DNA from: Microbacteriaceae bacterium PS02332
GTDB taxonomy: Bacteria; Actinomycetota; Actinomycetes; Actinomycetales; Microbacteriaceae
DNA length: 47,030 bases
Reading direction: 5' to 3'
Assembly (NCBI GenBank): GCA_029959645.1
Contig: JASCOJ010000006.1
Location: forward strand, 1-47,030
Shown here one piece after another: positions 96 to 24,190 of this stretch; within the stretch, counting starts at the first letter, position 1; each line of letters begins with the position of its first letter. The notes under the pieces are model-generated. The model was not told the DNA's origin, searched no databases, and saw only the letters and a list, made by a program, of their open reading frames with translations. Made by a program: the position numbers and the translations under genes.

Positions 96-896
96 TCAGT
101 CGAGGAGGTCAGGGTCGAGGAGGCTCGGCTCAGACTCGGACGCGTCGCGCTTCATGATGATCAGCTCGATGACCCAGGGCGCGTGTCGGAACGCCGTCGC
201 CGGTCGCTGGTCGTACCAGCCGGGCTTGTAGTTCGACTCGCGGGAGCCGGTCGGGTTGTCCGCAGCGTGCGACGGGGTCGCGTCGAGCTGGACGCGCTGG
301 CTGACACCCGGCAGGTAGCTCCACTGACGCGGCGTAGACGCGTCCGTGGCCCAGTGGTCAACGCTGTGCTGGTCGGCGTTCTGCTGCTCGATGAGGTTCC
401 GCGTGGAGCGCCGCTGGGCACCCTCGAGGTGGTCGTACTTGCGGGTGGGCGGGAGCATCGCGGCGGGGACACGGTGCGCGTACCCGAAGCAGTTCGGGTC
501 GTTCGGCGCGGGCGTCGGGGCCGGCTGCAGCGCATCTCCGTCCAGGTTGGTCTCCCCCACGGTGCGGGGCGTGGCGACGGGCCATCCGTCGCAGTGCCAG
601 CGCACCAGGACGTTGCTGACCTGGATGTCGGCCTCCAGCACGCGGCTGCGGTGCAGCTCCGTCTTGTCCGACTGCGACGCATCGGTCGGGGTGAACGTGG
701 CGTCCACCGCGTAGGTGTCGACGAACTGGCGGCGCCAGGCACGGATCATCGGGCAGGTGAACTCCTGCCGGCCTCGGCGGCCGGCTCGGCGGAGGGCGAT
801 GCGCAGCTGCTGCAGCTCCTCGACGCTGTGGATGTGGTGCGTCGCCTGCGTGCAGGTCGTGATGGGGGTGTTGCTGATGGTGAGGTTGCGGTCCAT
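96..896 (-). CDS. Hypothetical protein, 266 aa
   Basis: I do not recognise a family. The ATG at 896 was chosen because AAGGA lies at the right distance upstream (GAAGGACACCACC then ATG); a longer reading frame to 1223 has no such site and reads as low-complexity sequence. The protein is soluble, with no membrane segment or signal peptide. The N-terminal half is basic, with a helical Arg-rich stretch near residues 25-45, and the C-terminal half is rich in Trp, Tyr, Pro and Asn. It is transcribed away from the operon that starts at 1305. A phage or plasmid structural or accessory protein is possible, but nothing in the sequence decides it. Confidence 0.6.
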   Translation of the reverse strand: MDRNLTISNTPITTCTQATHHIHSVEELQQLRIALRRAGRRGRQEFTCPMIRAWRRQFVDTYAVDATFTPTDASQSDKTELHRSRVLEADIQVSNVLVRWHCDGWPVATPRTVGETNLDGDALQPAPTPAPNDPNCFGYAHRVPAAMLPPTRKYDHLEGAQRRSTRNLIEQQNADQHSVDHWATDASTPRQWSYLPGVSQRVQLDATPSHAADNPTGSRESNYKPGWYDQRPATAFRHAPWVIELIIMKRDASESEPSLLDPDLLD

Positions 897-1304: not shown

Positions 1305-1898
1305 GTGAATGGCAGCCCCGACGAGACGGCGCTGACCGCGAAGCAGCGTCAGCAGCTCGCCGCGATTCGTGGCATGGCGCGCATCCCGTTATCGGACCTG
1401 CGCGACCAGAGTCCCCCGAACCTCCAGGCCCTCTACGCCGAACTGCAGGACGGCCAGGCGCTGATCCCGGGCCTGAAGATGGGGCTCGGTGCTCTCACCG
1501 TCCAGCGTTGGGATCCCGCTTACGCGGCCAAGGGTTGGACGCTGTACGGTGCGGACCTCACGCTCGACATGGGGCACCCGTTCGGGTCGATGTTCTACCG
1601 CAACGACACCGACGGCCGTGTGCTGCGCATCGGTGTGAAGTGGCACCCGCCGGTGCAGCAACTCGAGTTCCCTGCCCTGCACCCATCGAAGCCGGAGCTC
1701 ACGTCTGACTGCACGGCTGAGGAGGTCGCCGCGGTCGTGTTGGACGCGCGGAGTCGGATCGGGACTCTTGTCGCGATCAACGCGCAAATCGGGTCGTTCG
1801 TAGCCACCGAAGAGTCAGAGAACGCCATCCTCGACGCATCAGGGCTCGGGCTCGAGCGGCTCTCCGAAGACGACCCACGGTTGGCTGGCGATGCCTGA
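1305..1898 (+). CDS. Hypothetical protein, 197 aa (first gene of A/B operon)
   Basis: First gene of a compact operon running to 5678. The GTG start at 1305 has no obvious Shine-Dalgarno sequence, and an in-frame ATG at 1374 is a possible alternative. The protein is soluble and mixed alpha/beta, with a hydrophobic, Gly-rich centre (around residues 55-110) followed by an acidic helical C-terminus. I recognise no family. Its end overlaps the start of the next gene by 8 bases, so the two are probably translationally coupled. Being first in an operon of paralogous A and B proteins, it could be the effector or a regulator, but the sequence gives no catalytic motif. Confidence 0.6.
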   Translation: MNGSPDETALTAKQRQQLAAIRGMARIPLSDLRDQSPPNLQALYAELQDGQALIPGLKMGLGALTVQRWDPAYAAKGWTLYGADLTLDMGHPFGSMFYRNDTDGRVLRIGVKWHPPVQQLEFPALHPSKPELTSDCTAEEVAAVVLDARSRIGTLVAINAQIGSFVATEESENAILDASGLGLERLSEDDPRLAGDA

Positions 1899-2208
1899 GC
1901 GTGGGGCGGCGCTGCGATTCGAGCCGGTGCCGTTGCGGCTGCTGTCGTTGTCGGCGCAGTTCGACGCCGGGATCTGGCCGACGTTGGCCGGAATGACGTT
2001 CACGAACTCCACCGGGCCGAAGATCCTGCAGCGGACCGTCAACGTCCGCACCAGCGAAGACGGGTGGGTGTTCACGCTCCTGAACGGAACACCATTGTCG
2101 GATCCTGCGGACCCGCTGCGTGAGGCAGCGACTCAAGTGATGGACGCACTGTCGAAGCTTCGTGCGGTGGGGCGTGGTCCTGAAGCGGCTGGTGCGGCTG
2201 ATGTCTGA
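1891..2208 (+). CDS. Small A-domain protein A1, 105 aa
   Basis: Member of a local family of four small proteins (with 3229-3504, the N-terminus of 3545-4408, and 4396-4650). The shared pattern is a hydrophobic strand with LxSL, an Asp, a Gly followed by a [VM]xF strand, a further strand, and a C-terminal helix with spaced Ala/Glu and Leu. A1 is the most divergent copy. It overlaps the next gene by 8 bases, which couples it to the 342-residue protein B1. The same A-then-B arrangement recurs at 4396-5678, so A and B probably act as a pair. The function is unknown. Confidence 0.6.
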   Translation: MPERGAALRFEPVPLRLLSLSAQFDAGIWPTLAGMTFTNSTGPKILQRTVNVRTSEDGWVFTLLNGTPLSDPADPLREAATQVMDALSKLRAVGRGPEAAGAADV

Positions 2209-3229
2209 CCGGCAGTGGGTGCGGACCATCCGGCATGAGCAGTCGATGCTGTCGCTGCCGTTCGGGCTTGGCTACACGATCGACATCACCGAGACCCTCA
2301 CCGCCCTCGCTGCTGCCGGGCTGACCGCACGCGTGGAGACGTTCGACCGGCTCCGATTCGACGACGGCCGCACGGCGCTTCTCGCCACCCCGGACCCGAC
2401 CACCACCGTCACCGACGGCGACGGCGGCGAGGGCCGGGTGGATGATGTGATCCTCCTGCCCGGCGGGTCCGAGGGCGGGGTGCTGTCACTGGTGCGCCGA
2501 TACCCCGACCTGGTGGTCGTGAACGGGAAACGCGGGCGGGTGTGGGCTGACGGGCGGCAGCTGTCCGGCACGTCGATGCAACGGGAAGCGACCCCAGGGT
2601 GGCGGACCGTGTTCGCGATCGCCCGCGCCATCGCCATCCACGGCGGGGGTTCTCAGTCAATCGCGGACCGCATCGGCATTCCACTTGATGTTGTGCGTGC
2701 CGCGATGCCTGCTCTCGGGACACACGTGTTCTTCACGCCGATCGGGTGGGAAGCAGCCGATCGCGCCGCCCTGTGCGATTGGGCGCTGGCGGCCTACCCC
2801 GGTGTCGGTGGAATCCGGACCTGCTGGCGCCGCGACACCACCATCGACGAGCAGGCGGACCAGCTGATTGCGTTGGGTGGGGTGATGTCGGACCGGTGGG
2901 CGGCGCAGCAGTCCGGCGTACTCGTCCCGCCAGACCGATTGACCGCGTTCTTCGCCGAGCATCCCGACATGCAGGCGCTCGGCTACGAGCCCGCCACTAT
3001 GAATGAGGCGACAGTGTCGGTCGTCATCCCGCAGGACACCACCGTCCTGACCGGCGCTGAGGGGTGCTGCGCGGACGACTTCATCACCGCGCACGTTCTC
3101 TACGAAGACAGCTGGGTGGCCGCGAACACGGATGCGGTGAACGGGCTGCGGCAGCTGCTGCACTTCAAGTCGGACCTTGCCCATGACCTTCGCTGGCACC
3201 CCGGCAGCGGTGAGGGCAGGGAGGGCTGA
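2201..3229 (+). CDS. B-family protein B1, 342 aa (AbiEi/COG4861-like layout)
   Basis: Paralogue of 4650-5678 and exactly the same length. Shared blocks include FGLGxTxDxTxTL near the N-terminus, a VWxDGRQ segment, a putative winged helix around residues 140-190 with GW and a following DWALAAYPGVGGIR block, then a C-terminal EQA, GYEP and DDxITA pattern. The order (ligand or RNA-binding N-terminus, winged helix, substrate-like C-terminus) resembles the AbiEi-type antitoxin/regulator family COG4861, but this is from memory of the family layout and not a search. ATG at 2201 lies inside the end of A1. No toxin of the AbiEii nucleotidyltransferase type is adjacent. Confidence 0.65.
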   Translation: MSDRQWVRTIRHEQSMLSLPFGLGYTIDITETLTALAAAGLTARVETFDRLRFDDGRTALLATPDPTTTVTDGDGGEGRVDDVILLPGGSEGGVLSLVRRYPDLVVVNGKRGRVWADGRQLSGTSMQREATPGWRTVFAIARAIAIHGGGSQSIADRIGIPLDVVRAAMPALGTHVFFTPIGWEAADRAALCDWALAAYPGVGGIRTCWRRDTTIDEQADQLIALGGVMSDRWAAQQSGVLVPPDRLTAFFAEHPDMQALGYEPATMNEATVSVVIPQDTTVLTGAEGCCADDFITAHVLYEDSWVAANTDAVNGLRQLLHFKSDLAHDLRWHPGSGEGREG

Positions 3230-3504
3230 TGCTGCAACTGCTGTCACTGACGTTGGCGTACGACGACACCCGATTCTTCGGCTCCGTCATGTTCACCGAC
3301 CCCACCCACCCGGACGACAATCCCGCCGCGGTCCTGGTGGACCACACGGATGAACCGCCCTGGTTCCGGCTCACCAACGTGGACCCGGACGGGCAGGATC
3401 GTTCGGTCCCGGCGATGGTCGAGGCGGAACGCATCATGCGGTTCCTCCTCCGCTACACGCCCGAACGCATCGGCCGCACTCCCGCCGACTTCCCCCAGCC
3501 CTGA
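3229..3504 (+). CDS. Small A-domain protein A2, 91 aa
   Basis: The start ATG shares its A with the stop codon of B1, a one-base overlap. The sequence begins LQLLSLTLAYDD, continues with a GSVMFTDP strand-turn, and ends with a helix containing VPAMVEAERI. These elements align by eye with the N-terminus of the next gene (MHLVSLHLSND, GHVLLEDT, VPAVREANRI). Here the domain stands alone. It is soluble, with no membrane segment. Confidence 0.65.
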   Translation: MLQLLSLTLAYDDTRFFGSVMFTDPTHPDDNPAAVLVDHTDEPPWFRLTNVDPDGQDRSVPAMVEAERIMRFLLRYTPERIGRTPADFPQP

Positions 3505-3544
3505 TCCGCTCTGCTCACGCCCGTCCCTTTGGAGGTAGTTGCTG

Positions 3545-4408
3545 ATGATGCATCTGGTGTCCCTGCATCTCTCGAACGACCGGATCCTCTCGGGGCATGT
3601 CCTCCTCGAGGACACCGAGAACCCGGACGCACACCTGGCGCAGATCCTTGTCCGCGCCGTGGATGTCGAGCCGGGGTATGAGCTCTACGACAGGACCAAC
3701 ACGGTCCTGTCGGACCTGACGGTGCCGGCGGTGCGGGAAGCGAACCGTATCGTGCAGACCCTCCTCATCCCCGCCTCCGAGATCGCGAAGCGGGAGAAAG
3801 CCGTTCGGGCGGTGATCCACTCCGGCTACTTGGAAGGGTCCCCCGACGACATGCCCTGGCAGTCGCAGCTGTGGATGTACGCCCGCGGTGAAGTCACCCG
3901 CGAGCAGCTCAGCGCCTACGCCGACGAAGGCAGACAGATCCCCCGTGCCCCCGACCACGGTGCTGTTGGTCCGGCGGACGTTCCCGAGGACTGGTGGCAG
4001 ACCACACAGGCCCGAATCCGCCGGAACCTCCTGAACACGACCCTCACCGAACCCGAAGTCGCTGCGGCCCTGCAGGTCAGCATTGACGAGGTCGGGGAGC
4101 TGTTCGAGTCGTGCCGGCTGACGAGCTTCGACCTCGATGGCGAAGAACGCATCCCGGACTGGCAACTCGTGAAGCCCGCCCTCCCCGAGTTCGGCGACCC
4201 GTCCTCGCTGCTGCCAGGCCTTGACGTCCTCTACGCGGCAGCCCCGCAGCCGCTCCTCGACGCGGCAGCAATGACGGAGTTCATCACCACACCCTTGGAC
4301 TTCCTCGCCGTCGACGACCGGATCCTGACCCCGCTCGACTGGATGCGGGAAGGCCGACCGCTGACGACGATCATCGCCCTGTTCCGCGGACGACGGTGGC
4401 GACCTTGA
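3545..4408 (+). CDS. A-domain fused to HTH/DUF2384-like region, 287 aa
   Basis: Residues 1-75 are an A domain like that of 3229-3504. After a linker, residues about 150-205 contain a probable helix-turn-helix (LTEPEVAAALQVSIDEV) followed by PDWQL. The last about 70 residues end in FLAVDDRILTPLDWMREG, a layout typical of the Xre/MbcA/ParS (DUF2384) antitoxin toxin-binding domain. That suggests a DNA-binding antitoxin-like regulator of the operon, but the assignment is inference from motif layout. ATG at 3545 is 8 bases behind a good GGAGGT; a TTG at 3539 is too close. It overlaps the next gene. Confidence 0.65.
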   Translation: MMHLVSLHLSNDRILSGHVLLEDTENPDAHLAQILVRAVDVEPGYELYDRTNTVLSDLTVPAVREANRIVQTLLIPASEIAKREKAVRAVIHSGYLEGSPDDMPWQSQLWMYARGEVTREQLSAYADEGRQIPRAPDHGAVGPADVPEDWWQTTQARIRRNLLNTTLTEPEVAAALQVSIDEVGELFESCRLTSFDLDGEERIPDWQLVKPALPEFGDPSSLLPGLDVLYAAAPQPLLDAAAMTEFITTPLDFLAVDDRILTPLDWMREGRPLTTIIALFRGRRWRP

Positions 4409-4650
4409 CCAACCGGCCGGACCTGTTCCTCCTCAACGTCTCCTACGACGTCACCGGGGTGCACGGGCACGTGTTCTTCCGCGACCCGCCTAGCAGCGAG
4501 CTGCGGCAGGTCATCATCCGCAGCACCGACACCGGCAACATCTGCGAACCAGTACACGGGGACACCCGCGACGGGTGGGAACCGTTCCTCGAAGAAACCC
4601 GCTGGCTGATCGCCATCACCCGGCCCGACACCCCGGGAGAACAAAGCTGA
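4396..4650 (+). CDS. Small A-domain protein A4, 84 aa
   Basis: Fourth A domain, with a hydrophobic strand (LFLLNVSYD), GHVFFRDP, a strand with VIIRSTD and a C-terminal helix. It starts with GTG at 4396 inside the preceding gene (a TTG at 4405 is an alternative). Its TGA shares one base with the ATG of B2, so this A-B pair is joined in the same way as A1-B1. Confidence 0.6.
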   Translation: MATLTNRPDLFLLNVSYDVTGVHGHVFFRDPPSSELRQVIIRSTDTGNICEPVHGDTRDGWEPFLEETRWLIAITRPDTPGEQS

Positions 4651-5678
4651 TGGGACTGAGGCTCGAATGGGTCGCCGCCGCATACGCCGGCCGGCCGCGG
4701 ATCACGATGCCGTATGGGCTCGGTGACACCACCGACCTCACCGACACCCTCACCGTCCTGAAACTCGCTGGGCTTCGCGCGGTCGTGGAGACGCACGACA
4801 CAATCCGCCTCCCCGACGGCCGCCGAGCACGCTTCCCGACCCTCACCCAACGCCCCCGCAACGACGACCCGACTGATGCGGAACTGCTCCTGCTGGCCCC
4901 GCGGACCGTGACTGCGACGCAGATCGCGCTCGCGGAGCAGACGGCGACGGTGCTGCTGGTCGACGTCGACCGGCGCCGCGTCTGGATCGACGGCAGACAA
5001 GCCCTCGGGACGAAGGAACGATGGAAGGACGCCGCCCCCATCTACGTCACCTTCGCCGTCGCACGGCTGCTCGCCGTCAACGGCTCCACCTTCGACAAGC
5101 TCGTGCAGGCCGGACTCACTGCCGGACAGGTAGATGACGCGCTCGCACGCCTCGGGAAACGCGTGCACCGCACGGACATCGGGTGGGAGTCACGGCAGGT
5201 CGGTGGCCTCGTGGACTTCGTTATCGCCTGCTATCCAGGACCGGGCGGCGTCAGGACACGATGGACGTCCGACCTGCCGCTGGCCGAGCAGGCGGAACGG
5301 CTCATAGGTGCGGGCTGTCGCATCTCCGGGCGCGCCATCTCCGCCCGGCCCGGCTACCCCGCCATCAGTAGACGGGAGATGCCGTACCGGCTCGTCGCGT
5401 TCACCGAGGAAGAAGTTGACATGGCCGCGCTCGGGTTCGAACCCGACACGATCGGCTTCGCCGGCACCGAACTCATCCGGCCAGCGGACCCCGCGATCTT
5501 CCTCACCGCGGCCGCCGCCGGCTACACGGACCGCACCGACGACATCATCACCGCGAACACGATTCTCCGCGCCGACTACCGCAACGCCGACGACACAGCG
5601 TCCCTCGAGGAGGTGCGGAACCGGCTGCAGTTCCTCGCCGACATCGGCTACGACCTCCGCCACAACCTGCCCAACTGA
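4650..5678 (+). CDS. B-family protein B2, 342 aa
   Basis: Paralogue of B1 (2201-3229) with the same length and the same order of blocks: PYGLGDTTDLTDTL, RRVWIDGRQ, a putative winged helix, CYPGPGGVRTRW, EQAERLIGAG with ISGRAIS, MAALGFEPDT, an IRPADPAIFL strand, DDIITANTILRADY, and a final helix SLEEVRNRL ending YDLRHNLPN. The DNA just past the stop codon is also similar to that following the decayed copy at 6605-6710, so the duplication extended beyond the coding sequence. Last gene of the operon. A regulator or antitoxin is my best guess; the function is undetermined. Confidence 0.65.
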   Translation: MGLRLEWVAAAYAGRPRITMPYGLGDTTDLTDTLTVLKLAGLRAVVETHDTIRLPDGRRARFPTLTQRPRNDDPTDAELLLLAPRTVTATQIALAEQTATVLLVDVDRRRVWIDGRQALGTKERWKDAAPIYVTFAVARLLAVNGSTFDKLVQAGLTAGQVDDALARLGKRVHRTDIGWESRQVGGLVDFVIACYPGPGGVRTRWTSDLPLAEQAERLIGAGCRISGRAISARPGYPAISRREMPYRLVAFTEEEVDMAALGFEPDTIGFAGTELIRPADPAIFLTAAAAGYTDRTDDIITANTILRADYRNADDTASLEEVRNRLQFLADIGYDLRHNLPN

Positions 5679-6116: not shown

Positions 6117-6326
6117 ATGTCAACTCCCGCCCCTCATGGCTATCAGTTTAGGCCCCAACTGCCCACTTTGGCCAACATCCGTGCGCGCCTTGGGCGTGTC
6201 GAGTTGCGGATCTTGAAGCCCTCGCGATCCGTGATCACTGTGTCGCCTGACCTGCGAGCGATCATCGACTTGATGAAGTTCGCGGTTGCAGCCTACGTGG
6301 CTATCCGCTACAGCGTCGGGCTGTAA
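6117..6326 (+). CDS. Small hypothetical protein, 69 aa
   Basis: The start is supported by CAGGAA six bases upstream. The N-terminus is Pro-rich and basic; the C-terminal about 20 residues (IIDLMKFAVAAYVAIRY) form a possible single membrane helix or amphipathic helix. It is followed at once by a strong hairpin (6337-6374), which favours an independent transcript. No family is recognised. Confidence 0.5.
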   Translation: MSTPAPHGYQFRPQLPTLANIRARLGRVELRILKPSRSVITVSPDLRAIIDLMKFAVAAYVAIRYSVGL

Positions 6327-6336
6327 CTGTCAAGTA

Positions 6337-6374
6337 CCGAACGGTCTCGACTCCTCAGAGTCGAGGCCGTTCGG
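6337..6374 (+). terminator. Long hairpin terminator after 6326
   Basis: A 17-base arm starting CCGAACGG pairs with its complement ending CCGTTCGG around the loop CTCA, with one G-T wobble. It begins 11 bases after the TAA stop. The T-tract is weak, but position and stem length fit a terminator. Confidence 0.65.
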
Positions 6375-6604
6375 TGTCTACAGAGACGTGGCCGCGAACC
6401 ACACGACATCAAGGACATCCACATGGACATCATCGGCGAGATCGCCAGCAGCGCCCGACCGCGGTAGGTCACCGTGGGCCACTTGTCAGCCGCCCGTCTG
6501 AAGGTTCACGCTCTGCGGGCCAATCGTCTACCCGCGGAGTGCGCTCCGATGCAGCAGCGCCGACTGGCGCATCTGCGGTCTGGCCATCACACGCTCCCCC
6601 GAGC

Positions 6605-6710
6605 CGACTCCCGCAGCGGCGACGACGCGGCCTCGCTCGAAGAAGTACGGAACTGGCTGCTGTTCGCCGCCGACACCAGCTACGACCTCCGCTACAACCT
6701 GCCCAGCTGA
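6605..6710 (+). pseudogene. Decayed C-terminus of a third B-family gene
   Basis: Reading in the frame that ends TGA at 6710 gives DDAASLEEVRNWLLF followed by YDLRYNLPS. This matches the C-terminus of B2 (DDTASLEEVRNRLQF, YDLRHNLPN) nearly residue for residue. The rest of the B protein is absent; the sequence upstream in the same frame is unrelated. A 14-codon open frame at 6423 precedes it and may be leftover leader. It shows that the A/B locus was once larger or has been rearranged. Confidence 0.75.
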
Positions 6711-12683: not shown

Positions 12684-13190
12684 ATGGGACAAGCAGTACC
12701 GACCGGCGCGGTCGTCGTCGGCGTGCGGGCCGGGCAGGTGCGTGACGTTGTGACGGTCGCGGCGCAGATCGCTGAACGCTTCACGGTTCCCCTTGTGTGC
12801 GTGACCGTCGACCCAGCGCTCCTGTCAGCCGGGAATCGAGCGGACGGGTCCGAGATCATCGAGCCGATCGATCCGGACTCGGCAGACGCCGGGCCGGCGG
12901 ATCTTCCCGAAACTGACCGGGCCGTCATCGAGCAGATCGCCGCTGCTCGGTCGGTTCACGCCTCGGTGCTGGCGAAGGTCGGCGATCCCGCACGCGCGCT
13001 GGCCGCGGTCGCCGAGGAACGCGACGCGGTGATGATCGTCGTCGGCACCCAAACCGGTCGCCGGCGGATCACGGAGTTCTTCAACGGCTCGGTCGCGGCG
13101 CGACTCGCGCATCAGCAGCACCGTCCCGTCCTCGTGGTCCCCGTGAACCCCGTGGGGTTCGATGAACCGCTCCCGTGGGATGCGTCATGA
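12684..13190 (+). CDS. Universal stress protein, 168 aa (copy 1)
   Basis: A UspA-fold protein: an N-terminal VVVGVRAGQVRDVVTVA strand-helix and the C-terminal nucleotide-binding pattern VVGTQTGRRRITEFFNGSVAARLAHQ followed by PVLVVP. First gene of the fluoride operon; UspA-like genes are among those known to accompany crcB. Its translation is probably controlled by the hairpin at 12634-12677. TGA overlaps the gpm ATG. The paralogue is at 25795-26301. Confidence 0.88.
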   Translation: MGQAVPTGAVVVGVRAGQVRDVVTVAAQIAERFTVPLVCVTVDPALLSAGNRADGSEIIEPIDPDSADAGPADLPETDRAVIEQIAAARSVHASVLAKVGDPARALAAVAEERDAVMIVVGTQTGRRRITEFFNGSVAARLAHQQHRPVLVVPVNPVGFDEPLPWDAS

Positions 13191-13930
13191 CGGGTGCACT
13201 GGTGCTCCTTCGGCATGGGGCGACCCCCGCGAACCCGGCGGGGACCTGCCGGGGCCTGCGCGCGGGGCGCCTCCCCGCGCGCGGTGAGGAGCAGGCTCGA
13301 CAGGCCGGTCGGCTTCTTGCCGTGCACCACGTGATCCCGGACCTGATCCTCACGTCGACGTTGCAGCGCGCCGTCCACACCGCGGACCTCGTCAGCGACG
13401 TCCTCGGTCGGGACATCCCGACCACCGCGGTGTGGGAGTTGAACGAGCGGAACTTCGGCGCGCTCACCGGGATGACCAAGGCGGCATCCCTCGCTGCGCT
13501 TGGGGACGCCGAGTACCTGCGGCTGCGCCGTTCCCGAGACGGCCGACCAGCACCGATGCCACTCCGGCAATGGCTCACCCTTCGTCGGAGCCCAGCCCTG
13601 CGGGGTCTTCCGCGGGCGGCGGTCCGGCGAACGCAATCATTCGCCGACGTCATCACCCGCATCCGCCCAGTGCTGCGCGACCGGCTCCTACCCGCGGTGG
13701 CGGCGGGGCGGACGGTGTTGGTCGTCGCGCACGGGAACTCGTTGCGGGCGCTCTGCGCCTGCATCGATGACCTGTCGGATGCGGAGCTGGCGGAGCTGAA
13801 CCTGCCCACTGGGCAGCCCTTGCTGTACCGGCCGACTGGCGCCGGTTCGTTGCAGCCGCGGGGTGGGGAGTACCTCGACCCTGCAGCACATCACGCCGCG
13901 GCTCTCGTCGCGGCAGAAGGCGGAACATGA
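13187..13930 (+). CDS. gpmA: Phosphoglycerate mutase-like protein, 247 aa (copy 1)
   Basis: A histidine-phosphatase-fold protein of the 2,3-bisphosphoglycerate-dependent mutase type. RHG with His10, NERNFGALTGMTKA, RRSRDGRPAP and AHGNSLRAL are present. It would supply 2-phosphoglycerate to the enolase encoded in the same operon. Compared with the inverted copy, residues 11-32 are strongly altered: the usual RHGES and FTG..DVPLT positions read RHGAT and CRG..AGRLP. The catalytic loop may therefore be impaired in this copy. Four-base overlaps join it to usp and crcB. Confidence 0.85.
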   Translation: MTGALVLLRHGATPANPAGTCRGLRAGRLPARGEEQARQAGRLLAVHHVIPDLILTSTLQRAVHTADLVSDVLGRDIPTTAVWELNERNFGALTGMTKAASLAALGDAEYLRLRRSRDGRPAPMPLRQWLTLRRSPALRGLPRAAVRRTQSFADVITRIRPVLRDRLLPAVAAGRTVLVVAHGNSLRALCACIDDLSDAELAELNLPTGQPLLYRPTGAGSLQPRGGEYLDPAAHHAAALVAAEGGT

Positions 13931-14430
13931 CCACCCGAACGGACACCCCGATACTCGATGATCAGCTCCCATCCGACCCCGACGTCGATGTTTCCGATCC
14001 GCGACCGGTCATGCGGCCCGTGCACTTGCGGTGGCGCTACCTTGGCCTCGTCGCGCTCGGCGGTGCCGTCGGCACCGCGCTCCGCGACGTCATCAGCGGC
14101 CTCCTCCCCGCAGATGGTGGGGTGAGCTGGTCGATCTTCTGGATCAACATCACCGGCGCACTGCTGCTCGGTGTGCTCCTGGAAGCGCTCGCGCACCGCG
14201 GGCCCGACCAGGGCCGCCGTCGCGTCCTGCGGCTCCTCCTCGGCACGGGGGTCCTCGGTGGGTTCACTACCTACAGCACACTCGCCGAGTCCACCGCCGC
14301 GCTGTTCCTGGGCGGGCATGGCCTCGCCGGCACCGGGTACGCGCTCCTGACCGTCTTGTCTGGTGCGATCGCGACCGCCTGCGGGCTCGTCGTCGTGTCT
14401 TGGTTCCGTCCGCGGGAGGTGCGCGCATGA
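13927..14430 (+). CDS. crcB: Fluoride exporter CrcB, subunit 1 (copy 1), 167 aa
   Basis: A Fluc-type fluoride channel with four membrane helices. Family motifs [10 protein letters not shown], the NITGALLLG helix and [13 protein letters not shown] are visible. A polar N-terminal extension of about 35 residues precedes the first helix. With crcB2 immediately after it, it probably forms a heterodimeric, dual-topology channel that lets fluoride leave the cytoplasm. It overlaps both neighbours by four bases. Confidence 0.93.
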
Positions 14431-14798
14431 GCCCGCTCCTGGTCCTCGCCGTCGCGGCCGGTGGTGGGGTCGGCGCTGCCGGACGGTTCCTTCTCGACGG
14501 CCTGATCAACACGGGCCGGCAGTTCCGGCTCCCGGTCGGGACGTTGACGATCAACATCACCGGGTCGCTGCTACTCGGGATCATCGTCGGCGCTGCTACA
14601 CACCTCGGCGCGGTGCCGGTCGCGGTCCTCGGGACCGGGGTGATGGGCGGCTACACCACATTCAGCACCGCCAGCTTCGAGACCGTCCGCCTCGCCCGCG
14701 GCGGCCGGATCAACGCCGCCGCCGTCAATGGTCTCGGGATGCTCGTCGTCTCCGTCGCCGCAGCGACCGCCGGCATCCTCCTCGGCGGTCTGCTGTGA
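14427..14798 (+). CDS. crcB: Fluoride exporter CrcB, subunit 2 (copy 1), 123 aa
   Basis: The second Fluc subunit lacks the N-terminal extension of subunit 1. Motifs are [19 protein letters not shown] and [13 protein letters not shown], with four membrane helices. Tandem crcB genes usually encode a heterodimer with opposite topologies. ATG overlaps the stop of subunit 1, and its TGA overlaps the GTG of ppa. Confidence 0.93.
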
Positions 14799-15316
14799 CC
14801 GCCACCCCACATCCTGAAACGGACCTCCCCATGCAGTTCGACGTCACGATCGAGATCCCCCGCGGCAGCGGCAACAAGTACGAAGTCGACCACACCACCG
14901 GCCGGATCCGGCTCGACCGGGCCGTGTTCACCAGCATGGTGTTCCCCCAGGACTACGGCTCCATCGACAACACCCTCGGCGAGGACGGCGACCCCCTCGA
15001 CGCGCTCGTGCTCCTACCCCGCCCCACGTTCCCCGGCGTCGTGATCGACGTCCGCCCGGTTGGGATGCTCCGCATGGTCGACGAGAACGGCGGCGACGAC
15101 AAGATCCTCGCCGTCCCCGCCGGCGACGACCGGTTCGAAGACCTGCAGGACATCAGCGACGTCCCGGAGCACACCCTCATCGAGATCGAGCACTTCTTCT
15201 CCCACTACAAGGAGATCGAACACGGCAAGCACGTCACCACCAACGGGTGGGCCAACCGTCCTGCTGCCGAAGCCGTTATCCGCACCGCACAGGAAGCCCA
15301 CACCCGACACCCGTGA
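14795..15316 (+). CDS. ppa: Inorganic pyrophosphatase, family I (copy 1), 173 aa
   Basis: Hydrolyses pyrophosphate in the cytoplasm. The signature [13 protein letters not shown] and the metal/substrate segments [16 protein letters not shown] and DDKILAVP are complete, and the length is normal. Family I pyrophosphatases are classically blocked by fluoride, so an extra copy beside crcB could offset that inhibition. GTG at 14795 is preferred because it overlaps the crcB stop, just as the ATG does in the inverted copy; an internal ATG at 14831 would give the usual N-terminus. Confidence 0.92.
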
Positions 15317-15335
15317 TCCACGGGCCCCTTGACCG

Positions 15336-15396
15336 CCGCGGGGAGGCACTGGCGCTGAGTGATCGCCAGCAGGTCGTCCCCTCCGCCTCCCCGCGG
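15336..15396. promoter_or_regulatory. Conserved long hairpin between ppa and eno
   Basis: CCGCGGGGAGGC pairs perfectly with GCCTCCCCGCGG, with an inner CTGGCG/CGCCAG stem. The same structure lies between ppa and eno in the inverted copy (23594-23654) although the loop sequence differs. It may be an attenuator, partial terminator or mRNA processing site setting the eno level. Confidence 0.55.
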
Positions 15397-15452
15397 CTTT
15401 CCCTTCCATCCGCACGACCACGACGCATGACCCGACCAGAAGGAGCGTCACC

Positions 15453-16787
15453 ATGAACGACTACATCAGCGGCATCCACCACCACGGAGCCCACCAGGGC
15501 GAGTACGTCACCCACCACGACCACCCCGTCACCATCGACGCCGTCCACAGCACCCGCATCCTCGACTCCCGCGGCTACCCGACCGTCCGCGTCCTGCTCG
15601 AACTCGACGACGGCCGCACCGTCACCGGCGACGCCCCCGCGGGCGCATCCACCGGTGCCCACGAAGCCATCGAGCTCCGCGACGGCGGAACAGCGTTCGG
15701 CGGCCGCGACATCACCCAGGCGCTCCACCTGATCAACACCGACATTGCGGGCCTCCTCACAGGGCGATCGTGGTCCGCAATCGGACAGGTCGACGCCGCC
15801 CTCGCCGAACTCGACGGCACCACCGGGTACCGCCGGCTCGGCGCGAACAGCGTCGTCGCAACCTCCATCGCCGCATCCCGGGCGCTCGCACACGCCGCGG
15901 GCCTCCCGCTCTGGCAGTGGATCGCCGAGATCACCGGCTCGACGCCGCGGATGCCGGTCCCGCACTTCAACGTTCTCAACGGCGGCGCGCACGCAGCGAA
16001 CAAGCTCGACTTCCAGGAGTTCATGATCGCCCCCGTCAACGCCTCATCGATGGCCGACGCTGTCCGCATCGGCGCGGACGTGTACCACGCCCTCGCGGGC
16101 CTGGTGCGGGACCGGTTCGGTAGCCTCGGCCTCGGCGACGAGGGCGGCTTCGCACCATCGATCGCTGCACCCGAGGAAGCGCTCGACCTGCTGGTCACCG
16201 CGATCCGCGCCGCAGGCTACGAGCCGGGCGTCGACCAGGTGGCGATCGCCCTCGATCCGGCCGCGAACGAGTTCTCCCTCGGAGACGGCTCGTATCGGAT
16301 GCTCGACGACAGCCTCGACCGGGACGGGTTGGTCGACTACTACCGGCAGCTCATCGACACGTACCCGATCCGCAGCATCGAAGACGGGTGCGCTGAGGAC
16401 GACTATGACGGGTTCCGCCGCATGCAGGCGGCGCTCGGTGACCGGATCCAGAACGTCGGCGACGACCTCTACGTCACCGACCCCCAACGCATCCGCGACG
16501 GCGGCGAGCAACACCTGACGAACGCGGCACTGATCAAGCCGAACCAGATCGGCACCGTCTCCCAGACCCTCGGCGCGATCGCCACCGCCACCAGCATCGG
16601 GATGGCCAGCATGGTGTCGCACCGTTCCGGGGAGACCACGGACACGTTCATCGCCGACCTCGTCGTCGGGACCGGCACTGGGCAGATCAAGTCCGGCGCA
16701 CCCGCCCGCGGCGAACGGGTCGCGAAGTACAACCGGCTCACCGAGATCGCCGAGCAGCACCCGGATCTGCCCTACGGACTGATCTGA
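15453..16787 (+). CDS. eno: Enolase with His-rich N-terminal extension, 444 aa
   Basis: Converts 2-phosphoglycerate to phosphoenolpyruvate. All main enolase blocks are present: GASTGAHEA, the NGGAHAANKLDFQEFMIAP block, SIEDGCAEDD, VGDDLYVTDP, LIKPNQIGT, SHRSGETTDTFIADL and GQIKSGAPARGERVAKYN. Oddities are a 25-residue His-rich N-terminus (HHHGAHQGEYVTHHDH), DSRGYPTVR in place of DSRGNPTVE, PAGASTG in place of PSGASTG in the metal-covering loop, and SIEDG for SIEDP. Enolase is a classical fluoride target, so these changes may matter for tolerance (inference). AAGGAG lies before the ATG. Its 3' end overlaps the convergent LysR gene by 16 bases. Confidence 0.92.
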   Translation: MNDYISGIHHHGAHQGEYVTHHDHPVTIDAVHSTRILDSRGYPTVRVLLELDDGRTVTGDAPAGASTGAHEAIELRDGGTAFGGRDITQALHLINTDIAGLLTGRSWSAIGQVDAALAELDGTTGYRRLGANSVVATSIAASRALAHAAGLPLWQWIAEITGSTPRMPVPHFNVLNGGAHAANKLDFQEFMIAPVNASSMADAVRIGADVYHALAGLVRDRFGSLGLGDEGGFAPSIAAPEEALDLLVTAIRAAGYEPGVDQVAIALDPAANEFSLGDGSYRMLDDSLDRDGLVDYYRQLIDTYPIRSIEDGCAEDDYDGFRRMQAALGDRIQNVGDDLYVTDPQRIRDGGEQHLTNAALIKPNQIGTVSQTLGAIATATSIGMASMVSHRSGETTDTFIADLVVGTGTGQIKSGAPARGERVAKYNRLTEIAEQHPDLPYGLI

Positions 16788-19638: not shown

Positions 19639-20451
19639 TTAGGTGGTGCCGATGACGAGGGTGCTGCGGGCGGCTTCGACGACGTCGTTGGTGATGACGT
19701 CGAGCTCGTTGATCTTCAGGACGCGTTGGATCTGTGGGAGTAGGCGTTCGAGGAGTCGGAAGTTGCCGCGGGTGATGCGTTCGACGGCGGCGATGGCTTG
19801 GGCGTCGGTGAAGTCGTCGGGGTCGAGCGTCTTGCCGAGCTTGCGCCATTGACGTTCGAGAACGAAGAGCAGCTCGTCGTGGCCGAGCGGACGGTACTGG
19901 TGGGCGAATCCGAGGCGGCTGTAGAGCTGCGGGTAGTGGCTGAACTGCTTCTCGATGCCGGGCATGCCGATGAGGATCATCGCGATGCCGGTGCGGTCGT
20001 ACTGGTCACGGAGCCACTCGACGGCGTTGCCGGTGAGGCGTTCGGACTCGTCGATGATGATCAGCTCGAGCAGCGACGGGTTGGGGCCGTGTGCGTGGTC
20101 GAAGTGGCGGCCGTGGAGGATGAGGTGTTCCTCGATGCAGTGTTCGGTGCGGAGCATGTCGTGCCGGAGGTCGTCCTGCAGGGCGCGCATCGTGGCGGAG
20201 ACCTCGGGCGTGTAGAAGACGGTGCGGGCACGGTGTGCGGCGGCGTAGATCTTGGTGTCGTCTTCACTGCGTGCGGCCCATCTGGCGATGAACGGGCCGA
20301 TGCTGTCCCAGTGGGCGTAGCGGCGTGCGGAAAGGGTCTTACCGACGCCAGCGGGGCCGAAGCAGACGCCGATGGTGTTCTGCTTCCGGACGGCGTCGGC
20401 GAACTCCGTGAACCGGCGGTGTTCCTTCGTGATGATGAACTGGTTCGTCAT
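19639..20451 (-). CDS. tniB: TniB/TnsC-type transposition ATPase, 270 aa
   Basis: An AAA+ regulator that guides the transposase to target DNA. Walker A is GPAGVGKT (residues 32-39), Walker B LIIIDESERL, sensor region AMILIGMPGIEKQF, with an arginine-bearing YSRLGFAHQYRPL segment after it; the length is usual for IstB/TniB proteins. ATG overlaps the end of the transposase gene by four bases, so they are translated together. Confidence 0.9.
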   Translation of the reverse strand: MTNQFIITKEHRRFTEFADAVRKQNTIGVCFGPAGVGKTLSARRYAHWDSIGPFIARWAARSEDDTKIYAAAHRARTVFYTPEVSATMRALQDDLRHDMLRTEHCIEEHLILHGRHFDHAHGPNPSLLELIIIDESERLTGNAVEWLRDQYDRTGIAMILIGMPGIEKQFSHYPQLYSRLGFAHQYRPLGHDELLFVLERQWRKLGKTLDPDDFTDAQAIAAVERITRGNFRLLERLLPQIQRVLKINELDVITNDVVEAARSTLVIGTT

Positions 20452-21839
20452 GACCGGTCCTCCTCGTAGGTCTTCAGTCGCGGTTGATCCGGTGCGGGTG
20501 CTGGTGGGGTGTGATCATCGGGTGTGGGGCGGACGATCGCGATGCGTTCGCGGATCTGCCCGCGCAGCGCTCTGCGTTGCGCGTTCCGGGCGGCTTGGAT
20601 CTGTTTGAGGCTGATCGTCTCGGTCTGGTGCTGGGTGCTGATGGCGGTGCAGAGGAACGCGTCGCGGTGGAAGACGCGGATCTCGGTGACGTCGCGGGGG
20701 TCGTACCGGACGCTGACGGTGCTGCCCACGAAGGGTGCGAGGGTGGTTGCGGTGTAGCGGAGCCCTTCGAAGTGGATGCCGTCTCGTTGCACGACGCGCG
20801 TGGTTGGGACGGTGAGCAGGAACCCGTCGAGCTGCTCGAGGGAGTCCGGCAGTCGTGGCAGCCACCCGTGTGCGATCCACGCTTCCAGTGGGCTCTTCCG
20901 GAGCTCGCGGTGGGTGCGGGCGTTGTAGCGGCGGATGAACGTGTTGATGGCACTGTCGACGCCGGCGAGATCCAGCGCTGGCGTCGGCGCGGAGGATCTG
21001 GGCGCGAGGTGGCCGGGGAGCGTTGGGAGCAGCTCGGTGTTGATGGTGCCGAAGAACCGCTCGATCTTCCCGCGGCCCTGAGGGCGAGCGACCTGGGAGT
21101 GGATGATGCGAAGGCGCAGCATGGCGGCTGTGTCGCCGATTCGGTGGCTGGTGAAGTCCGACCCGTGGTCCGTGTAGAGCACGTCTGGGATCCCACAGAC
21201 GGGCCAGTCCGGCTCCGGCTTGTGCCAGATCGCTTGCCGGAGCGCGAGCGCTGTGTTCGCCGCTGATGGGGCGCCGAGGAACACCATGTACCCGCAGACC
21301 GCGCGGGAGTAGTCGTCGAGGACCACCGTCAACCACGGCCGTGCGGGCTTGCCATCCGGCCCAACGATGAGCAAGTCCAGCATCGTGTGGTCCGCCTGCC
21401 AGATCGCGTTCGGACGGTCAGCGCGACGTCGGAGCAGTAGCTCGTGCTTGTCCCGGTACGACGCCGGCCCCTCGAGCGCGAGCGTCACCATCCCGGGGTC
21501 GAGCCCGTTCACGATCGACCGCACGACGGAGTACGACGGTGCCGGCTGTCTCCGTTCGGCGCAGTGGACGCTGACCTGACGGTGAATCGTGGCGATCGAC
21601 GGGCGCGGCCTGGTGAGCGCGAGACCCTCGACCAGGCGGACGAGTTCCGGTGCCGTCCGTCGGCCGCCGTGATCGGTACGGGTGCCGTCAGCGAGAGCCG
21701 GGTATCCGCCGGTTCGGTAGCGGGCGAGCCAGCGTTGCAGGGTGCGCTCGGCGATGCCCGTGGTGCGGGCGAGGGCGGCGAGCGGGATGGCGTCGTCGAC
21801 GTGCAGTCGAAGGATCCGCCACCGCTCGCTCGCGTCCAT
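20448..21839 (-). CDS. tniA: TniA/TnsB-type DDE transposase, 463 aa
   Basis: Carries out strand cleavage and joining at the transposon ends. N-terminal helix-turn-helix domains (ALARTTGIAERTLQRWLARY) bind the ends. The rve/RNase-H catalytic triad is Asp150 (WQADHTMLD), Asp224 (YTDHGSDF) and Glu260 (GRGKIERFF), with D-35-E spacing. A Mu-type C-terminal beta-barrel (VGSTVSVRYDPRD) follows. It looks intact and is followed by tniB with overlap. Confidence 0.92.
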   Translation of the reverse strand: MDASERWRILRLHVDDAIPLAALARTTGIAERTLQRWLARYRTGGYPALADGTRTDHGGRRTAPELVRLVEGLALTRPRPSIATIHRQVSVHCAERRQPAPSYSVVRSIVNGLDPGMVTLALEGPASYRDKHELLLRRRADRPNAIWQADHTMLDLLIVGPDGKPARPWLTVVLDDYSRAVCGYMVFLGAPSAANTALALRQAIWHKPEPDWPVCGIPDVLYTDHGSDFTSHRIGDTAAMLRLRIIHSQVARPQGRGKIERFFGTINTELLPTLPGHLAPRSSAPTPALDLAGVDSAINTFIRRYNARTHRELRKSPLEAWIAHGWLPRLPDSLEQLDGFLLTVPTTRVVQRDGIHFEGLRYTATTLAPFVGSTVSVRYDPRDVTEIRVFHRDAFLCTAISTQHQTETISLKQIQAARNAQRRALRGQIRERIAIVRPTPDDHTPPAPAPDQPRLKTYEEDRS

Positions 21840-21845
21840 GACTGG

Positions 21846-22448
21846 CTACATCGTCGGTGAGGGCTTCGGCCGCCTGGCAGCGACCGGTTCGGGGTGGCGG
21901 GCGATGGTCCGGTAGATGGTGGTGCGGCTGACGCCGAGGACATCACCGATCTGCGCGACGGTCATGTCCTGCTGCTCGTAGAGCCGGCGCGCCGTACGCA
22001 CCTGGTCCGCCGAGAGGCGGGACGGCCGGCCGCCGGTGCGGCCGCGGGCACGGGCGGCGGCGAGGCCGGCGTTGGTGCGTTCCTTGATGAGGTCCCGTTC
22101 GAACTCCGCCAGCGCGGCGAAGACGTGGAACACGAGGCGGCCACCGGGTGAGGTGGTGTCGATGGTCTCCTGCAAAGACCGGAATCCGATCCCGCGCTCG
22201 GCGAGGCCCTGCAGCTGGTCGATGAGGTGTCGGATGGATCGACCAAGCCGGTCGAGTCGCCAGACGACGAGGGTGTCCCCGGGGCGGAGCTGGTCGAGGA
22301 GTTTGTCGAGCTCGGGTCGGTGTTGGAGCGAGCCGGACATGGTGTCGACGAACACGCGGTAGCAGCCGGCGGCGTTGAGCGCGTCAATCTGCAGCGACGC
22401 GTCCTGGTCGGTGGTGGACACGCGCGCGTACCCGAGGAGGTGACCCAT
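21846..22448 (-). CDS. tniR: Serine resolvase/invertase, 200 aa
   Basis: Resolves transposition cointegrates. The catalytic domain has YARVSTTDQDASLQ with Ser11, GDTLVVWRLDRLGRSIRHL and AEFERDLIKERTNAGL. The C-terminal helix-turn-helix reads MTVAQIGDVLGVSRTTIYR. ATG at 22448 begins the conserved domain; 62 in-frame codons upstream cross the transposon end and are not coding. The inverted sites at 22458-22522 directly upstream may be its res site or transposase-binding sites. Confidence 0.9.
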   Translation of the reverse strand: MGHLLGYARVSTTDQDASLQIDALNAAGCYRVFVDTMSGSLQHRPELDKLLDQLRPGDTLVVWRLDRLGRSIRHLIDQLQGLAERGIGFRSLQETIDTTSPGGRLVFHVFAALAEFERDLIKERTNAGLAAARARGRTGGRPSRLSADQVRTARRLYEQQDMTVAQIGDVLGVSRTTIYRTIARHPEPVAARRPKPSPTM

Positions 22449-23019: not shown

Positions 23020-23127
23020 ACTCAGTTCTGCTGCGTGTTGGCGAACGTATCGCGGTTGGTCGCCATCCGGGGAAGAGACGCACTTCACCCGAGGCAGCTC
23101 CAGTGTACGGCTTGGAGTGGACATGAG

Positions 23128-23158
23128 AAAAGCCGACCCGCTATCGATCGGCCTTTTT
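23128..23158. terminator. Rho-independent terminator T1 of module 1
   Basis: GCCGA...TCGGC flanked by AAAA on one side and TTTTT on the other, so it can work on both strands. It starts just beyond the truncation point of eno copy 2 and about 140 bases from T2. Confidence 0.7.
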
Positions 23159-23170
23159 GGGCGCACACGC

Positions 23171-23540
23171 TCGTGCCGTCGAGCTCCGCGAGGGCCGCGT
23201 CGATCTGCCCGATCGCGATCCAGGATCGGCCGGTGAGGAGCCCCGCGATCTCAGTGTCGATCATGTGCAGTGCTTGGGTGACGTCGCGGCCGCCGAACGC
23301 GGTGCCGCCGTCGCGGAGTTCACGGGCTTCGTGCGCGCCGGTGGATGCTCCGGCGGGGGCGTCGCCGGTGACGGTGCGGCCGTCTTCGAGCTCGAGGGAC
23401 ACGCGGACGGTTGGGTAGCCGCGGGAGTCGAGGATGCGGCTGCCATGCACCGACTCGATACCGACCGGGTGGTTGTGGTGGGTGACGTACTCACCCTGCG
23501 GTGTGCCGTGGTGGTGGGTGCCGCTGATGTAGTCGTTCAT
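23171..23540 (-). pseudogene. eno: Truncated enolase (copy 2)
   Basis: ATG at 23540 with GGAGCGTCACC upstream. It encodes the same His-rich extension and about 118 residues of enolase up to LAELDGT, matching copy 1. After about 23171 similarity stops abruptly and the frame runs through the terminator sequence to a stop at 23085. The catalytic barrel is missing, so it cannot be an active enolase. It shares DSRGYPTVR and PAGASTG with copy 1. Confidence 0.9.
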
Positions 23541-23593
23541 GGTGACGCTCCTTCGTTCGGGTCGTGCGTCGAGTAGTGCTGGTGTGGGCTGGG

Positions 23594-23654
23594 CCGCGGG
23601 GAGGCGGAGGGACGACCTCCTGGCGATCACTGGGCGCCAGTTGCCTCCCCGCGG
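23594..23654. promoter_or_regulatory. ppa-eno hairpin (copy 2)
   Basis: Same 12-base perfect stem (CCGCGGGGAGGC/GCCTCCCCGCGG) as at 15336-15396, with a changed loop but a retained inner CTGGCG-type stem. Confidence 0.55.
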
Positions 23655-23674
23655 CGGTCTGTGAGGCGCCGCGG

Positions 23675-24190
23675 TCAGGGGTGCCGGGTGTGCGCTTCTT
23701 GCGCGGTGCGGATGACTGCTTCCGCGGCGGCACGGTCGGCCCACCCGTTGGTGGTGACGTGCTTGCCGTGCTCGATCTCCTTGTAGTGGGAGAAGAAGTG
23801 CTCGATCTCGGCCCGGGTGTGCTCGGGAACGTCGACAACGTCCTGCACGTGGTCGAACCGGTTGTCGCCGTTGGGGACGGTGAGGATCTTGTCGTCGCCG
23901 TTCTCGTCGACCATGCGCAGCATCCCGACCGGACGGACGTCGATGACGACGCCGGGGAACGTGGGACGGGGCAGGAGCACGAGCGCGTCCAGTGGATCGC
24001 CGTCCGCGCCGAGGGTGTCGTCGATCGAGCCGTAGTCCTGCGGGAACACCATGCTGGTGAACACGGCCCGGTCCAACCGGATGCGACCGGTGGTCTGGTC
24101 GACTTCGTACTTGTTGCCGCTGCCGCGGGGAATCTCGATCGTGACGCCGAAGTGCATCAGGGCCTCCGATTCGGGAGTTGGTGTGGTCAT
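23675..24190 (-). CDS. ppa: Inorganic pyrophosphatase, family I (copy 2), 171 aa
   Basis: Intact family I pyrophosphatase with [23 protein letters not shown], the [16 protein letters not shown] segment and DDKILTVP. Compared with copy 1, it lacks one Gly in the ENGGDD stretch and differs at scattered positions. Its ATG overlaps the crcB stop (ATGA), which supports the longer start also chosen for copy 1. Confidence 0.92.

What the first reader, a model, noticed from the sequence alone, without database searches (positions are those of the whole stretch)
1305..5678. Operon alternating a repeated small domain (A) with paralogous 342-residue proteins (B)
Four proteins share one small domain that I cannot name (1891-2208, 3229-3504, the N-terminus of 3545-4408, 4396-4650). 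Two B paralogues of identical length (2201-3229, 4650-5678) each directly follow an A gene with overlapping start and stop. One A domain is fused to an HTH/DUF2384-like region, a hallmark of antitoxins. B resembles AbiEi-type (COG4861) regulators in layout. No classical toxin is nearby, so either A or the first gene (1305-1898) may be the effector. This could be an undescribed toxin-antitoxin or defence-like system.
Basis: partly seen in the sequence, partly recalled or inferred. Interest (0 to 1): 0.8.

Follow-up and report, generated by a model that had tools for sequence, protein, structure and literature searches.

The report
Mobile cassette of toxin-free antitoxin genes
A block of seven tightly packed genes that turns up at different places in Curtobacterium genomes is built partly from antitoxin-type parts belonging to three different bacterial toxin families, yet carries none of those toxins, so it may protect its carrier from other elements' poisons; this has not been tested at the bench.

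Summary
The window (Curtobacterium, near-identical here to C. pusillum) has a seven-gene unit at 1305-5678: G1-A1-B1-A2-A3-A4-B2. B1/B2 are paralogues (E 7e-55). A2, A3-N and A4 share a small domain; A1 weakly; G1 unproven. The order recurs in about 25 Curtobacterium-type loci in several flank types; homology starts in G1 and stops at the B2 stop codon; all seven genes are under purifying selection. B's distant relatives sit beside a DUF1814-like nucleotidyltransferase (11 of 14 loci), so B is AbiEi-like. A3 fuses an A domain, a VbhA (Fic-antitoxin) domain with intact SxxxEG motif (25 of 25 cassette copies; 53% identical to a VbhA beside a Fic) and a helix-turn-helix half whose relatives sit beside RES toxins (5 of 12 loci). 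Among 34 cassette-type B places in 26 genomes, no RES or nucleotidyltransferase lies within 30 kb; a Fic lies within 30 kb of two. Best reading: a mobile, toxin-free multi-antitoxin (anti-addiction or anti-abortive-infection) cassette. Main rival: a toxin-antitoxin or defence system whose effector is A or G1. Against my reading: divergent relatives (L073-L076) lack the Fic motif; nothing was tested functionally; structure models were poor.

The parts
1305..1898 (+). G1, 197 aa; unnamed domain, conserved first gene of the cassette
   Evidence: a match in 12 of 398 family genomes (own included), 4 genera
1891..2208 (+). A1, 105 aa; probable A domain; not found in L025, L027-L030, L036
2201..3229 (+). 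B1, 342 aa; AbiEi-like (wHTH in the middle) regulator/antitoxin type
3229..3504 (+). A2, 91 aa; A domain
3545..4408 (+). A3, 287 aa; fusion A domain + VbhA domain + HTH half
3545..3775 (+). A domain of A3 (predicted beta-beta-beta-beta-alpha)
   Evidence: block means of pLDDT 77-86 in residues 21-70
3791..3913 (+). VbhA domain of A3; Fic-inhibitory motif SGYLEG at 3821-3838
   Evidence: Pfam PF18495 E 7.6e-5, 23.1 bits, just under the 25.9-bit cut-off; 26 of 49 identical to stand-alone VbhA of L113
3992..4405 (+). HTH half of A3, related to proteins beside RES toxins
4396..4650 (+). A4, 84 aa; A domain
4650..5678 (+). B2, 342 aa; AbiEi-like, paralogue of B1; cassette homology ends at its stop codon
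6588..6710 (+). Scar: 3' end of another B2 copy (65% identical to residues 303-342)

Best explanation
A mobile, toxin-free, multi-antitoxin cassette. Shown by sequence: B1/B2 belong to an AbiEi-like kind whose distant relatives pair with a DUF1814-like nucleotidyltransferase; A3 carries a VbhA domain with intact Fic-inhibitory motif and an HTH half related to proteins that precede RES toxins; none of these toxins is in the cassette and they are rarely near it; the same block occurs at different sites. Inferred: when a cell holding the cassette meets a toxin of these classes (from a competing plasmid or island, or from a host abortive-infection system), A3's VbhA helix would place its glutamate in the Fic ATP site, the HTH half would bind RES, and B would neutralise the nucleotidyltransferase as AbiEi does. 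The A domain, made just before B in coupled genes, is proposed as a B partner or adaptor; B and the HTH half would also autorepress the operon.
For: B relatives: nucleotidyltransferase adjacent in 11 of 14 distant loci L043-L056 (broken in L046), and in none of the loci with A/G1 genes in that set. That protein keeps GG, RRTxDAD, an invariant K-x6-R and +DxxD in 8 of 8 aligned, the DUF1814 motifs of PMC3985639 (passages), though with about 21 residues between motifs I and II where that paper gives 15. Central wHTH in a B relative (PF13545 7.9e-5, below cut-off; B2 model helices 130-171). VbhA: PF18495 7.6e-5; 26 of 49 identical to a stand-alone VbhA (PF18495 2.9e-10) beside a Fic (PF02661 1.2e-13) with HPFMEGNGR (best of 2000 shuffles 41 against 125); Fic adjacent in 3 of 3 genus loci L113-L115; SGYLEG in 25 of 25 cassette A3 copies. 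HTH half: RES adjacent in 5 of the 12 loci fetched, of 24 HTH-only matches by my count; Pfam RES 4.9e-12 and 2e-7 for two. Toxins circulate in the genus: RES in 43 of 61 genomes, L113-type Fic in 7, nucleotidyltransferase in 5, two of them weak. Of 34 cassette-type B places in 26 genomes none has RES or nucleotidyltransferase within 30 kb on its contig. C. pusillum AA3 carries three cassettes on the chromosome (one with a split A3) and the nucleotidyltransferase pair, a RES gene and an orphan VbhA on its 567-kb plasmid. Cassette and RES co-occur (23 of 26 against 20 of 35, p 0.011). Orphan antitoxins in anti-defence regions have precedent (passages of PMC11541004).
Against: No function was tested. 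In the divergent relatives L073-L076 (L075 and L076 are from a Curtobacterium genome) the VbhA-like stretch lacks the full SxxxEG motif (4 of 4; L074 keeps a shifted LEG), so Fic inhibition cannot be the general function. A 395-aa Fic gene lies about 4 kb before the cassette of L025, and one Fic lies 13 kb from a cassette in G425, so 'no Fic near' is not absolute; Fic domains of any kind are in 59 of 61 genomes. B2 itself hits no Pfam, NCBIfam or PDB family significantly. RES neighbours were found for only 5 of 12 HTH relatives (my single-protein query is insensitive, so this is a lower bound). Co-occurrence with L113-type Fic (p 0.45) and nucleotidyltransferase (p 0.15) is not significant, and the RES p value ignores phylogeny and three tests. 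Four of seven genes (A1, A2, A4, G1) and the N-terminus of A3 have no antitoxin assignment. Two orphan-VbhA plasmids show that a VbhA domain need not mean a Fic partner.
Confidence: 0.4

Rival explanations
1. A self-contained toxin-antitoxin or phage-defence system: the A domain or G1 is an unknown toxin/effector, held in check by B1/B2 and A3.
For: Tight operon, antitoxin-type partners, A-B adjacency also in another genus (L073), mobile-element genes near some copies, defence-like patchiness (26 of 61 genomes by my count); A1, A2 and A4 evolve faster than B2, G1 and A3 (dN/dS 0.26-0.40 against 0.15-0.18; B1 0.22).
Against: No catalytic family found in A or G1; four A copies, one fused to antitoxin-type domains; PADLOC finds only one chance-level hit; A is only about 80 aa; the known partner toxin of the B family is absent.
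Confidence: 0.3
2. A regulatory module of mobile islands: DNA-binding B and A3 with A and G1 as co-factors, controlling excision or transfer genes; the antitoxin kinship is only of DNA-binding and dimerisation domains.
For: wHTH in B relatives and the HTH kinship of A3; an XRE-like gene found near 11 cassette or relative loci and other shared island genes.
Against: The VbhA motif in A3 is not a DNA-binding feature and is kept in 25 of 25 cassette copies; flanking mobility genes differ between groups of loci.
Confidence: 0.22
3. A target-choice module of Tn7-like transposons.
For: TnsA/TnsB/TnsC-like genes diverge from the cassette in L028, L033, L040, L082; TnsA- and TnsB-like in L032, L037; other transposase genes in L029.
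Against: Only 7 of 25 cassette loci have such genes in the fetched flanks (in the window they are 14 kb away and not counted), and the TnsA-like genes of the two groups did not find each other.
Confidence: 0.04

Closest known systems
AbiE type IV toxin-antitoxin (AbiEi/COG5340-COG2253 and COG4861-COG4849 pairs)
   Same: B resembles the regulator partner; B's distant relatives sit beside a DUF1814-like nucleotidyltransferase
   Different: No nucleotidyltransferase in the cassette; B duplicated and coupled to A genes; no significant family hit for B itself
Class I Fic toxin-antitoxin (VbhA-VbhT)
   Same: VbhA domain with (S/T)xxxE(G/N) motif, 53% identical to a genus VbhA beside a Fic
   Different: Domain is the middle of a 287-aa fusion and has no adjacent Fic
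RES-Xre (MbcA-ParS) toxin-antitoxin (family name by recall)
   Same: HTH half of A3 related to proteins that precede RES toxins
   Different: No RES within 30 kb in the surveyed genomes; no Pfam DUF2384-type hit
Orphan antitoxins as anti-defence or anti-addiction genes (plasmid leading regions, PMC11541004; phages, a reference in PMC12548467)
   Same: Antitoxin-type genes without their toxins, on or near mobile DNA
   Different: Seven-gene conserved array joining three toxin classes; not linked here to conjugative leading regions or phages
Panacea hyperpromiscuous antitoxins (PMC8832971, listing and abstract start only)
   Same: Idea of one antitoxin system for many toxins
   Different: Here by joining several domains, not one versatile domain

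Membership tests
AbiE type IV TA | AbiEi-type regulator with wHTH and C-terminal domain | tested here: inconclusive
   B relatives have sub-threshold wHTH hits and toxin partners; B2 itself has no significant family or fold hit
AbiE type IV TA | Adjacent DUF1814 nucleotidyltransferase toxin | tested here: not met
   Profile search finds none in the window or the cassette loci; none within 30 kb of 34 B places; present in 11 of 14 distant B loci
Class I Fic TA | (S/T)xxxE(G/N) inhibitory motif in a VbhA domain | tested here: met
   SGYLEG, 25 of 25 cassette copies; PF18495 7.6e-5, just below cut-off
Class I Fic TA | Adjacent Fic toxin | tested here: not met
   Pfam Fic positions: within 30 kb of 2 of 34 cassette B places, neither adjacent; the genome's only Fic is on another contig
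RES-Xre TA | Adjacent RES toxin | tested here: not met
   Pfam RES positions: none within 30 kb of 34 cassette B places; the genome's one RES is on contig 310
RES-Xre TA | Antitoxin with HTH and MbcA-ParS-Xre C-terminal domain | tested here: inconclusive
   Homology to RES-linked proteins but no DUF2384-type Pfam hit
Known defence systems (PADLOC) | Match to a component model | tested here: not met
   Only one chance-level hit, E 0.01
Anti-addiction / orphan antitoxin genes | Neutralises a toxin encoded elsewhere | not testable with these tools
   Needs co-expression
Tn7-like targeting module | Constant linkage to tnsABC | tested here: not met
   7 of 25 loci have tns-type genes in the fetched flanks

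The most novel reading that the evidence does not exclude
A horizontally moving pan-antitoxin cassette that gives its carrier immunity to three unrelated toxin classes (Fic AMPylases, RES NADases, DUF1814-like nucleotidyltransferases) at once, as a counter-measure against addiction and abortive infection, with the A domain as a new adaptor that widens or tunes antitoxin B.
Probability: 0.3. Interest if true: 0.82.

Novelty: new variant of a known kind. Interest (0 to 1): 0.6.

Why it matters
Orphan antitoxins are suspected, but rarely shown, to be weapons in conflicts between mobile elements. A conserved seven-gene array that joins antitoxin-type parts of three toxin classes, present up to three times in one genome and leaving recurrent scars, would be a direct, testable case, and would name two new small domains (A and G1) in that conflict. 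If instead A or G1 is an effector, it is an undescribed toxin-antitoxin or defence system. The library and paper searches made here did not turn up this arrangement.

Tried and rejected
AlphaFold models of A3 and B2 were poor (mean pLDDT 52 and 53) and Foldseek against the PDB gave nothing at E <= 0.001; they are used only for the A domain's secondary structure and the wHTH region of B2. PDB sequence search with the B profile gave only weak partial hits, mostly wHTH regulators (best E 0.01). Searches of viral contigs with A3 and G1 profiles confirmed no relative; phage records none for A3; plasmid records none for G1, only VbhA pieces for A3 in 2 records, distant B relatives in 17 records. G1 as an A domain was not established. 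Fucose isomerase, polysaccharide deacetylase and tRNA nucleotidyltransferase hits were judged noise. A Rfam search of two loci found nothing.

First claims that were mended on checking: I had first taken single-protein searches as proof that no Fic or RES lies near any cassette. One search (Pfam Fic) showed a Fic in the flank of L025, and my own RES profile missed known RES genes in L133-L135, L153 and L154 (control); the absence claim now rests on Pfam and profile positions in 26 genomes (places typed by hand from those outputs).

Several cassette copies are broken (split frames in L028, L030, L039, L040, L082; L116 lacks G1 and an intact B2; L038 is cut by its contig end; L041 and L042 are remnants); they were described, not mended. 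Rows dropped: short or partial hits were left out of the profiles and the dN/dS sets. The 26 cassette genomes were listed by hand (best E 1e-149 or lower), broken copies included.
Full report
What is there. The window is contig 306 of a 3.5-Mb Curtobacterium genome (genus), near-identical in this stretch to C. pusillum AA3 (B2 100% identical). Seven genes on the + strand, 1305-5678, overlap by 1 to 13 nt, with one 40-nt gap before A3. I call them G1-A1-B1-A2-A3-A4-B2. B1 and B2 are paralogues (E 7e-55). A2, the N-terminus of A3, and A4 share the small domain (E 4e-8 and 7e-4); A1 is a weak but probable member. None is named by Pfam, NCBIfam or PADLOC except for a VbhA match in A3, E 7.6e-5, just below that model's cut-off.

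It is a discrete unit. One scan of public genomes returned 22 loci, 20 of Curtobacterium and 2 of a Microbacteriaceae isolate; two of the 22 (L041, L042) hold only the end of B2 and one (L038) is cut by its contig. Wherever the region is complete the order is the same, with A1 not found in L025, L027-L030 and L036. DNA homology among the loci begins in the start of G1 and ends at the B2 stop codon. Outside these limits flanks are shared only within small groups (L021-L023 with the window; L028, L033, L040 upstream; L032, L037 upstream; three short downstream types) and otherwise differ. Some genomes carry two or three copies (CP018783.1: L021, L028 and a third). Remnants of the B2 3' end lie at 6588-6710 in the window, in L036, L041 and L042; those of the window, L036 and L042 are followed by sequence that follows an intact B2 elsewhere: old copies seem to be replaced or deleted, leaving this end. 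In a sample of 61 Curtobacterium genomes, 32 hold a B-like stretch and 26 a cassette-type B by my count. All seven genes show purifying selection (median dN/dS 0.15-0.40), though several copies have split frames. Tn7-like or other transposase genes lie in the fetched flanks of 7 of 25 cassette loci; other recurrent neighbours, named by eye from their sequences, are XRE regulators, a zinc-ribbon gene and Dam-type methylases.

What B is. A family-level search matched 16 of 150 genomes, own and one same-genus genome included; the other 14 gave loci L043-L056. In 11 of these 14 a protein of about 250 aa is directly beside B (in L046 broken). It keeps GG, RRTxDAD, K-x6-R and +DxxD in 8 of 8 aligned proteins, matching the motifs given for AbiEii/DUF1814 nucleotidyltransferases in PMC3985639 (passages read) except for a longer spacing between the first two; Pfam's AbiEii model itself gave only E 0.075 for one of four tested. 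So B is of the AbiEi kind, the regulator-antitoxin of type IV systems. The three exceptions are L047, which has the cassette's A and G1 genes instead, and L055 and L056. No searched locus with A or G1 genes has the nucleotidyltransferase.

What A3 is. Residues 1-77 are the A domain. Residues 83-123 match VbhA. In Curtobacterium, three loci carry a relative of this stretch directly before a Fic toxin (L113-L115; the Fic frame of L115 has a stop). The A3 stretch is identical to the L113 antitoxin at 26 of 49 positions, including the Fic-inhibitory motif (S/T)xxxE(G/N) (PMC3667792, passages), here SGYLEG, found in 25 of 25 cassette A3 copies read. In the divergent relatives of L073-L076 the full motif is missing (4 of 4); L075 and L076 come from a Curtobacterium genome. 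The C-terminal half has relatives in other Microbacteriaceae (30 of 398 genomes match some part of A3); in 5 of 12 such loci fetched, a RES toxin is the next gene.

Relatives elsewhere. L047 and L073 (another genus) hold HTH, A and B in that order without VbhA fused to the HTH, with G1 nearby; in L047 two small ORFs lie between A and B. L074-L076 hold other combinations; in one genus (L077-L080) a G1-type gene stands without A or B. This suggests an older core of HTH, A, B and G1, in which the cassette line doubled A and B and gained the VbhA motif (inference).

How it may work. The cassette joins antitoxin-type parts for three toxin classes and has none of those toxins inside. Using Pfam and profile positions in 26 genomes, no RES or nucleotidyltransferase lies within 30 kb of 34 cassette-type B places on the same contig; a Fic lies 7.4 kb from B2 in one (L025, a 395-aa protein about 4 kb before G1) and 13 kb in another. 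The simplest reading is an anti-addiction or anti-abortive-infection cassette. In its favour: such toxins circulate in the genus (RES 43, Fic of the L113 type 7, nucleotidyltransferase 5 of 61 genomes; any Fic domain 59 of 61); in C. pusillum AA3 the 567-kb plasmid bears the nucleotidyltransferase pair, a RES gene and an orphan VbhA, and the chromosome three cassettes. Cassette presence goes with RES (23 of 26 against 20 of 35, p 0.011) but not significantly with L113-type Fic (p 0.45) or nucleotidyltransferase (p 0.15); phylogeny is not corrected. Orphan antitoxins are reported among genes of plasmid leading regions (PMC11541004, passages) and in phages (a reference in PMC12548467). Against: no function is shown, four of seven genes (A1, A2, A4, G1) and the N-terminus of A3 have no antitoxin assignment, and divergent relatives lack the Fic motif. 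The main rival, a system with A or G1 as effector, is nearly as likely.

Novelty. None of the literature searches (four papers were opened, in passages only) showed an A-B cassette or a fusion of this kind. As orphan antitoxins are known, I class it as a new variant of a known kind; the A and G1 domains are unnamed in the libraries searched.

Noticed in passing
window 12684-16787 and 23085-26301: An inverted duplication of a probable fluoride-resistance set (universal stress protein, phosphatase, two CrcB-like channels, pyrophosphatase, enolase; names by recall from the sequences) flanks a transposition set (TniB-like ATPase, transposase, resolvase; also by eye) at 19639-22448.
   Followed up: no
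window 6117-6375: A 69-aa ORF with a ribosome-site-like AGGA upstream, followed by a strong terminator-like hairpin (6337-6375), lies between B2 and the B2 scar (seen by eye).
   Followed up: no
L025, L031, L033, L039, L040, L042 just after the B2 stop; L148 5991-6030: A conserved hairpin-like stretch of about 37 nt follows B2, also near a divergent solitary B; no Rfam match in L033 and L148. Terminator or element end?
   Followed up: partly
L148 6469-7524: A third B type (351 aa) stands without A genes beside what looks like a fluoride island and a Dam-type methylase (by eye); similar places in five of 61 genus genomes at E near 1e-70.
   Followed up: partly
L152 3705-3941 and L155 4813-5168: Orphan VbhA antitoxins (two in tandem in L155) with intact SGRLEG motif on Curtobacterium megaplasmids; the L113 Fic finds no Fic beside them.
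   Followed up: partly
L031, L035, L047, L077-L080: Two or three long neighbouring genes (about 320, 330-420 and 500-634 aa) recur near cassettes and G1 relatives; the two tested have no Pfam hit; possibly an unknown recombinase set.
   Followed up: no
window 96-896 (-): A 266-aa minus-strand protein without Pfam hit recurs upstream of the cassette in L021-L023, L027 and L151.
   Followed up: no
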